Of a stretch of 64,000 nucleotides of DNA, positions 4,188 to 40,783 are shown one piece after another. This DNA is from Klebsiella aerogenes (GTDB lineage Bacteria; Pseudomonadota; Gammaproteobacteria; Enterobacterales; Enterobacteriaceae): positions 3,346,422 to 3,410,421 of the forward strand of contig CP119076.1 in NCBI GenBank assembly GCA_029027985.1, in the 5' to 3' direction. Each line of letters starts with the position of its first letter. Positions within the stretch are counted from its first letter, which is position 1. The position numbers were made by a program, and so were the translations under genes. The notes beneath the pieces are model-generated. The model ran no database searches. It had not been told where the DNA came from and worked only from the letters and a program-made list of their open reading frames with translations.

Positions 4188-5228
4188 TTATTGCGCGTCG
4201 AGCTGATTGCGGCGGTATTCGCCCTGCCGTTCCAGCATCCAGCCCGGATACTCGCGCGGCAGCGCGCTGATCGCATCAAGCTGACGCAGCTCTTCTTCGT
4301 TCAGGCGGATAGTCGTCGCGGCAATATTGTCGTTCAGCTGTTCGGCTCGTTTGGCGCCGATAATCACGCTGCTCACCGCCGGCTGATGCAGCAGCCATGC
4401 CAACGCAACCTGCGCCACTGAGACGCCTTTCGCCTCGGCTATCGCCCGCATCACGTCGATGCAGTCAAATGCGCGGTCTTTATTCACTGGTGGGAAGTCA
4501 AACGCCAGACGGCGGCCACCTGTTTCCGCCTGCCCTTCACGGCTATATTTACCACTCAGCAGGCCGCCTGCCAGCGGGCTCCAGACCATCAAGCCGAGAC
4601 CCTCACTTTGCATCATCGGCACCAGTTCACGCTCCAGATCGCGTCCGGCAATGGTGTAGTAAGCCTGTAACGAAGCAAAACGGGAGAGGCCAAGACGTTC
4701 AGAAATACCCAGCGCTTTCGCAATTTGCCAGGCCGCCCAGTTAGACACGCCGATATAGCGCACGTGTCCCTGTTGCACCAGGGTATCCAGCGCTGACAGC
4801 GTCTCTTCGATTGGGGTAGCCGGATCGAAACCATGCAATTGATAGAGATCGATATGATCAAGCTGCAGGCGGCGCAGGCTGTCTTTCACGCTACCCATGA
4901 TGTGAAAACGAGAACTGCCGCGCGAGTTCACGCCCGCCGTGCCGGTTTCGCCAAACACTTTGGTGGCCACGATTACGTTTTCACGCGGTATCTTCAGATT
5001 CTTCAGCGCCTGGCCGGTAATTTCCTCGGAGCGTCCTTCGGAGTAGACATTGGCGGTGTCGATAAAGTTGATGCCCGCGTCCAGCGCGCGGCCCACCAGC
5101 TGTTCCGCTTCCGCCTGGCGCAGCTGGCCGATTTTCCCCCACATGCCCTCTTCGCCGCCAAAGGTCATGGTGCCAAGGCACAGCTCAGAAACAAACAGGC
5201 CGGTATTTCCCAGTTTTTGATAACGCAT
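4188..5228 (-). CDS. Aldo/keto reductase
   Basis: A 346-residue NADPH-dependent oxidoreductase of the AKR superfamily with a (beta/alpha)8 barrel. The catalytic tetrad is visible as D57, Y62, K90 and H132. GVSN and the C-terminal IIGAKRAEQLNDN stretch match the cofactor-binding region of the Tas/YajO-like branch. ATG 5228 is preceded by AGGAG. It appears monocistronic, ending at the hairpin at 4137-4170. No physiological substrate can be read from the sequence. Confidence 0.9.
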   Translation of the reverse strand: MRYQKLGNTGLFVSELCLGTMTFGGEEGMWGKIGQLRQAEAEQLVGRALDAGINFIDTANVYSEGRSEEITGQALKNLKIPRENVIVATKVFGETGTAGVNSRGSSRFHIMGSVKDSLRRLQLDHIDLYQLHGFDPATPIEETLSALDTLVQQGHVRYIGVSNWAAWQIAKALGISERLGLSRFASLQAYYTIAGRDLERELVPMMQSEGLGLMVWSPLAGGLLSGKYSREGQAETGGRRLAFDFPPVNKDRAFDCIDVMRAIAEAKGVSVAQVALAWLLHQPAVSSVIIGAKRAEQLNDNIAATTIRLNEEELRQLDAISALPREYPGWMLERQGEYRRNQLDAQ

Positions 5229-35079: not shown

Positions 35080-35096
35080 CTTAAGGTTGTCTTAAA
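35080..35096 (+). promoter_or_regulatory. PmrA box of the eptA-pmrAB operon
   Basis: CTTAAG-GTTGT-CTTAAA is a tandem repeat of the PmrA half-site with the required five-base spacer. About 12-13 bases downstream is a CATAGC-like -10. It implies direct PmrA activation and positive autoregulation of the operon. Confidence 0.85.
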
Positions 35097-37458: not shown

Positions 37459-38556
37459 ATGGCACTGTTTGCAACCGAAACCTGGACCATGCGCCACCGC
37501 CTGCTGCTGACCATTGGCATCATTCTGGTGGTGTGTCAGTTAATCAGTGTCTTCTGGTTGTGGCATGAAAGCAAAGAGCAAATCCAACTGCTGGTTGCCA
37601 GCGCGATTGAAGGCCACAATAATCAGAAGCACATCGAGCACGAAGTGCGCGAAGCGGTCGCCAGCCTGCTGGTGCCAAGTCTACTGATTATCGGCCTGGC
37701 GCTGTATATCAGCCTGATGGCGGTGAAAAAAATCACCCGCCCGCTGTCGAATCTGCAGTGCGAGCTGGAGAACCGGACGCCGGATAACCTGCAGCCGATT
37801 ATTCTGCAAGAATCGGTGCCGGAAGTTACCGCGGTGACCACGGCAATCAACCAGTTGGTATCACGCCTGAACCTGACGCTCGATCGCGAGCGTCTGTTTA
37901 CCGCCGACGTTGCTCACGAGCTACGCACGCCCCTCGCCGGGCTGCGTCTGCACCTTGAACTGCTGGCCAAAGTACACAGCGTCAACGTCGACCCGTTAAT
38001 TCAGCGTCTCGATCAGATGACCAACAGCATTTCACAGCTACTGCAACTGGCGCGCGTCGGGCAATCTTTCTCCGCCGGTAGCTACCAGCAGGTACATTTG
38101 CAGGAAGATGTGGTGAAACCGCTGCAGGATGAGCTGGAAACGATGCTGCATGGGCGTCAGCAAACGCTGGAGATAGCAAACAGCGAAGGTGAGGATCTGG
38201 TTTCCGGCGATGTCACTCTGCTGCGGGTCATTTTGCGCAATCTGGTAGAAAATGCGCATCGCTATAGTCCGGCAGGTTCGAAGATTAAAATTTCGGTGAA
38301 ATCGGGAAATATGCCGATTATGGCAGTAGAAGACGAAGGCCCGGGGATCGATGAAGCGAAGAGCGGCGAACTCAGCAAGGCCTTTGTTCGCATGGACAGC
38401 CGCTACGGTGGGATAGGTCTCGGCCTGAGCATTGTTACCCGCATCGCTCAGCTCCACGATGCACAATTCTTTTTACATAATCGCCAGCCCGGCCCGGGGG
38501 TTCGCGCCTGGGTGCAGTTCCCGCGCAGTTTACGTCAGAAAGTTAATACCCACTGA
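37459..38556 (+). CDS. pmrB: Sensor histidine kinase PmrB (BasS)
   Basis: A 365-residue membrane kinase. Two helices (about 14-35 and 69-90) bracket a short periplasmic loop with acidic residues (HESKEQ, EGHNNQKHIEHEVRE) expected to sense Fe3+ or cationic peptides. HAMP follows, then the phospho-acceptor H153 in AHELRTP, and the ATPase motifs NLVENAHRYSP, DEGPGID and GGIGLGLSIV. T157, a position where substitutions can cause polymyxin resistance, is the usual Thr. Its 3' end overlaps the small gene at 38535-38627 on the other strand. Confidence 0.96.
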   Translation: MALFATETWTMRHRLLLTIGIILVVCQLISVFWLWHESKEQIQLLVASAIEGHNNQKHIEHEVREAVASLLVPSLLIIGLALYISLMAVKKITRPLSNLQCELENRTPDNLQPIILQESVPEVTAVTTAINQLVSRLNLTLDRERLFTADVAHELRTPLAGLRLHLELLAKVHSVNVDPLIQRLDQMTNSISQLLQLARVGQSFSAGSYQQVHLQEDVVKPLQDELETMLHGRQQTLEIANSEGEDLVSGDVTLLRVILRNLVENAHRYSPAGSKIKISVKSGNMPIMAVEDEGPGIDEAKSGELSKAFVRMDSRYGGIGLGLSIVTRIAQLHDAQFFLHNRQPGPGVRAWVQFPRSLRQKVNTH

Positions 38557-38627
38557 TGAAAGAAAGCGGTCACAATAACGAATGCGATCGCAATAGCCAG
38601 ATATTCACGGAAGTTAAGTTTTTGCAT
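38535..38627 (-). CDS. 30-residue PmrR-like membrane peptide under a PmrA box
   Basis: ATG 38627 follows GAGGA at seven bases and opens a 30-codon frame beginning MQKLNFREYLAIAIAF and ending VLTF. A charged N-terminus (K3, R7, E8) leads into one membrane helix at about 9-24. A perfect PmrA box lies 43 bases upstream on the same strand. Size, topology and regulation fit PmrR, the about 30-residue peptide that inhibits LpxT in Salmonella and E. coli. Sequence identity to those peptides is low as I recall them, so the symbol is withheld. It converges on pmrB and overlaps its last 22 bases. Existence as a gene is well supported; function is inference. Confidence 0.75.
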   Translation of the reverse strand: MQKLNFREYLAIAIAFVIVTAFFHQWVLTF

Positions 38628-38669
38628 GACGCTATCCTCATTAAACTGGGGATAGTGTTGCCGATTATG

Positions 38670-38686
38670 ATTAAGCCAACATTAAG
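38670..38686 (-). promoter_or_regulatory. Perfect PmrA box upstream of the 30-codon gene
   Basis: On the minus strand the sequence is CTTAAT-GTTGG-CTTAAT, the exact PmrA consensus. About 12 bases further is CACTAT (38652-38657) as a -10, then a leader of about 18 bases to the ATG. Confidence 0.88.
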
Positions 38687-38702
38687 AAGCTAAGCTAAAA
38701 GC

Positions 38703-38736
38703 GTGACGGCAGTTACAAAGAGATAATTACCGTCAC
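38703..38736 (-). terminator. uvrB terminator
   Basis: GTGACGG ... CCGTCAC closes a long loop and is followed on the minus strand by GCTTTT. It separates uvrB transcription from the PmrA-controlled small gene downstream. Confidence 0.65.
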
Positions 38737-38761
38737 CTTTTCCCTGACTCCAGCCCTACGA

Positions 38762-40783
<2,022 letters not shown>

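What the first reader, a model, noticed from the sequence alone, without database searches (positions are those of the whole stretch)
38535..38686. Unlisted 30-residue membrane peptide gene with a perfect PmrA box, convergent with pmrB
The minus strand after pmrB holds, in order, CTTAAT-N5-CTTAAT, a weak -10, GAGGA and ATG, then a 30-codon frame with one membrane helix. The geometry copies the eptA promoter 3.5 kb away. PmrR, known from Salmonella and E. coli, is a PmrA-activated peptide of this size that inhibits LpxT, so this could be the Klebsiella counterpart, physically linked to the two-component genes. Its 3' end is antisense to the last 22 bases of pmrB, which could add RNA-level feedback. 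Gene calling with ordinary length limits would miss it.
Basis: partly seen in the sequence, partly recalled or inferred. Interest (0 to 1): 0.85.

Follow-up and report, generated by a model that had tools for sequence, protein, structure and literature searches.

The report
Klebsiella PmrR peptide gene, hairpin-guarded start
The tiny gene next to pmrB is Klebsiella's version of pmrR, a known small membrane peptide that helps bacteria remodel their outer surface under stress; its ribosome site also carries a conserved fold-back sequence that may keep it silent unless its own switch is on.

Summary
Window 38535-38627 (-) is a 30-codon frame behind a perfect PmrA box (38670-38686), converging on pmrB with a 22-nt overlap. 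It is present in all 20 genomes held for the genus and under purifying selection (dN/dS about 0.12). It is the Klebsiella pmrR. E. coli pmrR sits in the same place, with a PmrA box and a 25-nt overlap, so the linkage to pmrAB is already known. The sequence has diverged so far that NCBI's PmrR model and Rfam's threshold miss it; profile comparison, intermediates and box spacing tie it in. Its expected target LpxT is encoded in the same genome. LpxT inhibition by this peptide is inferred, not shown.

Two points go beyond the finding. (1) Rfam's "sRNA" STnc630 is the pmrR promoter plus gene, and published ribosome profiling in E. coli shows footprints on it. (2) Most pmrR genes linked to pmrB (74 of 84 examined) carry a covarying inverted repeat joining the -10 region to the Shine-Dalgarno. 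The predicted PmrA-dependent start lies at the edge of its loop, so only longer transcripts (read-through from uvrB or proP) would fold and hide the ribosome site. That lock is a hypothesis, and the window's own stem is one of the weaker ones.

The parts
38535..38627 (-). pmrR ORF, 30 aa, one predicted membrane helix, stop included
   Evidence: conserved in 20 of 20 genus genomes; dN/dS 0.12
38535..38556 (.). 22-nt tail-to-tail overlap of pmrR with the 3' end of pmrB
   Evidence: E. coli has 25 nt
38670..38686 (-). PmrA box CTTAAT-N5-CTTAAT, no mismatch
   Evidence: box-like site (0-3 mismatches) upstream of all 97 distinct pmrR-like ORFs
38654..38659 (-). -10-like hexamer, 10 nt after the box
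   Evidence: same offset in 95 of 97; inferred, no start-site mapping
38645..38647 (-). predicted PmrA-dependent transcription start (7-9 nt after the -10)
   Evidence: inference
38631..38656 (-). inverted repeat: left arm 38647-38656 (overlaps the -10), loop 38641-38646, right arm 38631-38640 (holds the Shine-Dalgarno GAGGA); two mismatched positions in this genome
38528..38694 (-). match to Rfam RF02052 STnc630, full model 1-166, 40.7 bits (gathering 55)
37459..38556 (+). pmrB, sensor kinase
   Evidence: NCBIfam NF008025 equivalog, 562 bits
36783..37454 (+). pmrA, response regulator
   Evidence: NCBIfam NF007928 equivalog, 389 bits
35143..36786 (+). eptA, phosphoethanolamine transferase; its own PmrA-box-like site is at 35080-35096 (2 mismatches)
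   Evidence: NCBIfam NF008619 equivalog, 989 bits
38762..40783 (-). uvrB (name recalled from the sequence and its neighbours), same strand, 134 nt upstream of pmrR: possible source of read-through

Best explanation
This is pmrR of a Klebsiella. Shown here: a short conserved peptide gene under purifying selection, with a PmrA box at family-typical spacing, at the same tail-to-tail position as E. coli pmrR, in a genome that encodes LpxT. Inferred: phosphorylated PmrA turns it on together with eptA, and the one-helix peptide inhibits LpxT in the inner membrane, leaving the lipid A 1-phosphate free for EptA, as reported for Salmonella and E. coli PmrR. An inverted repeat that joins the -10 region to the Shine-Dalgarno is probably an RNA lock: the PmrA-dependent transcript starts at the edge of the loop and has an open ribosome site, while longer transcripts coming from the codirectional upstream gene fold and are poorly translated (this last step is a hypothesis, about 0.4).
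For: Frame in 20 of 20 genus genomes at 70-100% identity; dN/dS 0.12, 0.16 outside the overlap. E. coli 2A and BL21(DE3) have annotated pmrR in the same place. Klebsiella-side against E. coli-side profiles: probability 96.7%, E 4e-10 over 28 columns. NCBIfam NF033224 reaches some intermediates weakly: 3 of 8 tested, 14-19 bits, below the cut-off of 30. All 40 loci of the second fetch, found by the peptide model, carry a box-like site. LpxT ortholog in the same genome. E. coli: phenotypes after removal of the pmrR PmrA box fit relief of LpxT inhibition (PMC8129183, passages). STnc630, the same locus in E. coli, has ribosome footprints, RCV 2.45 (PMC5331693, table row). Hairpin: 94.8% standard pairs; covariation 0.316 against 0.139 shuffled, 0 of 500.
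Against: NCBIfam PmrR (NF033224) does not match this peptide nor the K. pneumoniae ATCC 13883 one; direct BLASTP with E. coli PmrR finds nothing; the Rfam match is below the gathering score. I saw no expression or binding data for a Klebsiella pmrR in the papers searched. 45 of 69 PmrB loci fetched had no boxed short frame at the pmrB end, so PmrB often goes without it. For the lock: the window's own stem has two mismatched positions; pmrR-like genes not found beside pmrB lack the hairpin even where the upstream gene appears to run in the same direction; no start site was mapped.
Confidence: 0.88

Rival explanations
1. The locus acts as a non-coding small RNA (STnc630) and the frame is incidental.
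For: Rfam files the family as sRNA; full-length match to the window, E 2e-6.
Against: Codon-position pattern and dN/dS 0.12; peptide model finds conserved frames over many genera; E. coli STnc630 is ribosome-covered, RCV 2.45; E. coli pmrR has a phenotype in print.
Confidence: 0.03
2. It is a PmrA-regulated membrane peptide of the PmrR family, but in Klebsiella it acts on another partner (PmrB, EptA or another envelope enzyme) rather than LpxT.
For: Low identity to E. coli PmrR (24%; no BLASTP match); only M1, F22 and W26 are invariant in the 19-row alignment.
Against: LpxT is present in the same genome and in all 83 genomes with a verified boxed pmrR, though LpxT is common anyway (239 of 392).
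Confidence: 0.1
3. The conserved inverted repeat serves the pmrB transcript (3' end, on the other strand), not pmrR.
For: The hairpin scores 6 or more in 74 of 84 pmrR genes that converge on pmrB and in 0 of 12 not found beside pmrB. In E. coli BL21 the sequence downstream of pmrB affects pmrB mRNA level (PMC8004244, passages), and the +86 construct ends at the edge of the loop, so it holds only one arm. C-A mismatches at positions 1, 2, 8 and 9 (10, 1, 5 and 1 of 35) would be G-U on the pmrB strand.
Against: Wobble pattern: at core positions 4-7, 14 G-U and 0 C-A on the pmrR strand, as expected if the pmrR-sense RNA pairs; partly confounded because positions 6 and 7 lie in the Shine-Dalgarno (positions 4 and 5 alone: 6 and 0). 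The same paper found pmrB half-life unchanged. The genes not beside pmrB are also more divergent.
Confidence: 0.25
4. The inverted repeat is a by-product of a constrained -10 and a constrained Shine-Dalgarno.
For: Both arms overlap such elements; non-cognate arms still pair at 6.89 of 9; two of the five measures (pairs with a double change, further pair types) do not exceed the shuffles.
Against: Cognate arms pair at 7.71 (largest of 2000 shuffles 7.21); one pair occurs as A-U 15, C-G 14, G-C 7, G-U 4 in 42 sequences.
Confidence: 0.1

Closest known systems
PmrR of E. coli and Salmonella (NCBIfam NF033224, LpxT activity modulator)
   Same: Position, convergent overlap with pmrB, PmrA box, 29-30 aa, one helix with conserved F and W near the C terminus; profile match over 28 columns
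   Different: About 24% identity; not recognised by NF033224; block sits between ybhK and uvrB instead of adiC and proP; LpxT inhibition untested for this sequence
Rfam RF02052 STnc630
   Same: Same locus: model covers PmrA box, hairpin and whole ORF
   Different: Annotated as an sRNA; the Klebsiella version scores 40.7, below the gathering score of 55
Leaders that hide the ribosome site only in read-through transcripts (IS10 transposase, phage T4 gene e; recalled, not looked up)
   Same: Inverted repeat over the Shine-Dalgarno with the native start inside or near the loop (inferred here)
   Different: Those are a mobile element and a phage gene; here a chromosomal stress-regulon gene; no experiment here

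Membership tests
PmrR | PmrA box driving the gene | tested here: met
   Box with 0 mismatches, 42 nt before the ATG; PmrA dependence itself not tested
PmrR | Position: convergent with pmrB, overlapping its 3' end | tested here: met
   22-nt overlap; E. coli 25 nt
PmrR | About 30 aa, single membrane helix | tested here: met
   30 aa, 15-residue hydropathy maximum 2.62; predicted from composition only
PmrR | Homology to known PmrR | tested here: met
   hhalign 96.7%, E 4e-10; BLASTP alone finds nothing
PmrR | NCBIfam NF033224 cut-off (a detection threshold, not a biological feature) | tested here: not met
   No hit for this peptide; E. coli PmrR 74.2 bits against cut-off 30; three of eight other Klebsiella-side peptides 14-19 bits, five none
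PmrR | Inhibits LpxT | not testable with these tools
   LpxT ortholog present in the genome
Rfam STnc630 | Gathering score 55 bits | tested here: not met
   40.7 bits, full length; E. coli locus 182 bits
Read-through-locked leaders | Stem over the Shine-Dalgarno conserved by compensatory change | tested here: met
   weaker in the window itself (two mismatched positions)
Read-through-locked leaders | Native transcript starts downstream of the left arm | tested here: inconclusive
   Inferred from the -10 offset in 95 of 97; no mapped start
Read-through-locked leaders | Long transcript poorly translated | not testable with these tools
   Folding only: Shine-Dalgarno open 0.00 in the long against 0.30 in the short RNA, medians of 75; 22 genes without the stem give 0.22 against 0.41

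The most novel reading that the evidence does not exclude
pmrR carries a built-in read-through lock: an evolving but compensated stem pairs the promoter's -10 strand with the Shine-Dalgarno, so the peptide can be made only from RNA that starts at the PmrA promoter. This insulates a lipid A switch from neighbours (uvrB in Klebsiella, proP in E. coli) when the eptA-pmrAB-pmrR block sits at different chromosomal places.
Probability: 0.4. Interest if true: 0.6.

Novelty: new member of a known kind. Interest (0 to 1): 0.42.

Why it matters
It places pmrR, usually discussed for Salmonella and E. coli, in Klebsiella and in many other enterobacterial genera, where the NCBI model misses at least the Klebsiella forms tested. 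Anyone reading pmrB 3'-end changes in Klebsiella should know that a second gene overlaps there. It also shows that the Rfam "sRNA" STnc630 is the promoter and coding region of pmrR. The conserved stem makes a testable case of a chromosomal gene protected against read-through translation.

Tried and rejected
Chance ORF plus chance box: rejected.

Linkage to pmrAB as something special to Klebsiella: rejected, E. coli is the same.

Upstream gene direction as the single explanation of the hairpin: not clean. Two linked loci whose upstream gene points away lack it (L120, L125), but so do L028, L110 and L138, whose upstream gene points towards pmrR, and the genes behind a crcB-like gene away from pmrB (gene names by reading, not by search). 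A first automatic reading that L110 had an opposite upstream gene was wrong. 'Not beside pmrB' rests on a tblastn search of the fetched flanks of about 1.2-1.5 kb with this window's PmrB.

E. coli BL21 constructs (PMC8004244, passages): resistance steps at +103 and +126 nt; in BL21 the PmrA box of pmrR is exactly +110 to +126 and the hairpin arms are +69 to +78 and +87 to +96. It is tempting to read the steps as completion of the pmrR promoter, but the host has its own pmrR (recalled for E. coli K-12) and PmrR alone should not add L-Ara4N, so this stays a suggestion.

LpxT co-occurrence: 83 of 83, but weak because LpxT is common (239 of 392).

Terminator and promoter scans of 38400-38900 found none. 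Nucleotide search of the region finds nothing in E. coli or plasmids. No paper describing a hairpin at pmrR was seen in the listings of searches (96 listed 10 of 425), but most listed papers were not opened; the PmrR paper cited by others (PMC3465083) is not held.

It showed that '8 of 19' NCBIfam matches are at E up to 10 and include weak matches below the cut-off; the text now says so.

Full report
What is there. The minus strand after pmrB holds a 30-codon frame at 38535-38627. A perfect CTTAAT-N5-CTTAAT box lies at 38670-38686, the only perfect copy in the window. pmrB ends at 38556, so the two genes overlap tail to tail by 22 nt. eptA, pmrA and pmrB are called by NCBIfam equivalog models well above cut-off. 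The block lies between the genes I call ybhK and uvrB (names recalled).

Is the frame real? In a search of 147 relatives the peptide is found full length in all 20 genomes of the genus (E at most 2.2e-8); 42 of 147 have some match at E 1, many of the weak ones inside longer frames and clearly chance. All 20 genomes held for the genus have it. Among the 20 there are 19 distinct frames; pN/pS is 0.19 and dN/dS 0.12 (0.16 outside the pmrB overlap, 0.01 inside it), with 17, 8 and 24 variable columns at codon positions 1, 2 and 3. Synonymous sites are near saturation (pS 0.53), so the ratio is rough.

Which gene? In E. coli 2A and BL21(DE3) the annotated pmrR, 'LpxT activity modulator PmrR', lies in the same place, overlapping pmrB by 25 nt, between pmrB and proP; 5358 of 5426 E. 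coli genomes hold at least 80% of that stretch. PMC8129183 (passages seen) states that E. coli pmrR overlaps pmrB, has its own PmrA box, and that deleting the box gives phenotypes fitting relief of LpxT from PmrR. PMC8004244 (passages) also describes the 90-bp frame and 25-bp overlap. The two peptides are too different for BLASTP. NCBIfam NF033224 (PmrR) matches the E. coli peptide with 74 bits but not this one. Of 19 aligned members, 8 match it at E up to 10; only four rows are E. coli-type, and of eight Klebsiella-side peptides scanned singly three match weakly (19.4, 17.4 and 14 bits, cut-off 30) and five, K. pneumoniae's among them, not at all. A profile of 13 Klebsiella-side peptides against 9 E. 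coli-side ones gives probability 96.7% and E 4e-10 over 28 columns. 'pmrR' is named for K. pneumoniae in one held paper, in a list of compared genes without detail (PMC10215860, passage).

How widespread? PmrB was found in 68 of 149 family genomes, giving 69 loci; 24 of these had a boxed short frame at the pmrB end and 45 had none, so PmrB often goes without pmrR. A peptide model built from 19 rows hit 107 of 392 family genomes at E 0.01. I verified a PmrA-box-like site for 83 of these; for the other 24 the hit was not fetched, 17 of them because it lies inside a long frame (451-510 codons) and 7 weak ones. In the pooled loci, 97 distinct genes at E below 1e-3 all have a box-like site (0 mismatches 41, 1 49, 2 5, 3 2), 40-51 nt before the ATG. 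The start codon was chosen partly by box distance, and the 19 model rows had been picked with a box. The cleaner test is the 40 loci of the second fetch, taken on the peptide match: 40 of 40 have the site. In a named set of 80 PmrB loci, 67 have pmrR with a box, among them Salmonella arizonae, Citrobacter, Kosakonia, Kluyvera and Raoultella; 13 have none found, five of them Pectobacterium. The block eptA-pmrA-pmrB-pmrR sits at ybhK/uvrB in some genera, adiC/proP in others, and elsewhere in a few.

Target. A PAP2 protein of the own genome (locus L038) matches E. coli lpxT at about 69% DNA identity. All 83 verified pmrR genomes are among the 239 of 392 with an LpxT match; this is weak, since LpxT is common.

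Rfam. The window matches RF02052 STnc630 over its full model with 40.7 bits, below the gathering score of 55; the E. coli pmrR locus scores 182. The model runs from just upstream of the PmrA box to the end of the ORF and has the stem described next in its consensus structure. So this 'sRNA' is the pmrR promoter plus gene. In E. coli O157:H7 it has 572 footprint reads on 502 transcript reads, RCV 2.45, with the Shine-Dalgarno aacggagga, which lies in the right arm and the loop edge (PMC5331693, table row seen). The paper does not name pmrR (0 occurrences).

The hairpin. Between box and ATG lies an inverted repeat whose right arm holds the Shine-Dalgarno. Of 97 genes, 85 have the NACT motif used as anchor and 75 of those score 6 or more; of the 12 without the anchor, a few show a stem by eye (L041, L140, L181). 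Among 35 distinct arm pairs (77 loci scoring 5 or more), cognate arms pair at 7.71 of 9 positions against 6.89 (sd 0.10, largest 7.21) when right arms are dealt anew 2000 times; the register was chosen for best pairing, which favours the cognate value. On a MAFFT alignment of 42 rows made without structure (rows chosen to have the stem, hairpin-less loci left out), RNAalifold recovers the same stem: 94.8% standard pairs against 85.7 shuffled, covariation 0.316 against 0.139 (sd 0.016), 0 of 500 shuffles, and 0.012-0.122 in slid registers; one pair occurs as A-U 15, C-G 14, G-C 7, G-U 4. Two other measures do not exceed the shuffles (pairs with a double change 300 of 500, further pair types 271 of 500), and related rows inflate the shuffle test. 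In the named set, 57 of 67 leaders have a contiguous stem of at least 7 pairs, G-U allowed. In the window itself the stem has two mismatched positions, though it still folds (-10.6 kcal/mol).

Why it may be a lock. A -10-like hexamer starts exactly 10 nt after the box in 95 of 97 genes (mean 3.43 of 6 matches to consensus against 2.82 in shuffled spacers; in shuffles at most 33 of 97 share one offset). With the usual 7 nt or so (recalled), the start falls 22-24 nt after the box; the first loop base is at 23 or 24 in 55 of 75. The left arm is then not in the PmrA-dependent RNA. In the K. pneumoniae pbgP promoter the -35 element lies at half-site 1 (PMC4660055, passage), consistent with this short distance. 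In RNA that starts at the box the Shine-Dalgarno is open 0.00 (median of 75), and 0.30 in the short RNA (67 of 75 lower in the long one); with the left arm shuffled the long RNA gives 0.20. The 22 genes without the stem give 0.22 and 0.41, so part of the gain comes from length alone; in the own genome 0.20 against 0.43, and 0.25 with the left arm shuffled. Codirectional upstream genes (uvrB, proP) could supply long RNA. On the pmrR strand the core positions 4-7 show 14 G-U and 0 C-A mismatches, favouring pairing of the pmrR-sense RNA, but positions 6 and 7 are inside the Shine-Dalgarno; positions 1, 2, 8 and 9 show 10, 1, 5 and 1 C-A against 0, 0, 1 and 5 G-U.

Against the lock. The 12 pmrR-like genes not found beside pmrB lack the stem, including several behind a codirectional crcB-like gene, while 74 of 84 linked ones have it (one further locus, L137, is counted in neither). 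That fits a role in the pmrB transcript as well, or a difference of clade. No start site has been seen here.

Verdict. The finding is real and correctly identified, but pmrR and its place beside pmrB are known. What is added: a divergent branch missed by the NCBI model, the identity of STnc630, and a conserved stem that gives a testable hypothesis.

Noticed in passing
L132 (pmrR leader 5156-5216, -) and L188 (about 1201 on the - strand), genome G150: Two pmrR-like copies about 6.5 kb apart on one contig, one at the pmrB end and one beside uvrB; the contig length equals that of Pluralibacter gergoviae ATCC 33028.
   Followed up: partly
L184, L185, L189, L195, L196, L197: PmrA-boxed pmrR-like ORFs not found beside pmrB, behind a crcB-like gene (named by reading), without the hairpin.
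   Followed up: partly
E. coli plasmid records: Four places on E. coli plasmid records match pmrAB/pmrR DNA.
   Followed up: no
window 38689-38733, - strand: Imperfect inverted repeat with a short T run after uvrB, possibly a weak terminator, seen by reading; the scan at its thresholds found none.
   Followed up: no
L085 6616-6750 and L101 6630-6774: Molybdenum riboswitch (RF01055) on the far side of the same neighbourhood.
   Followed up: no
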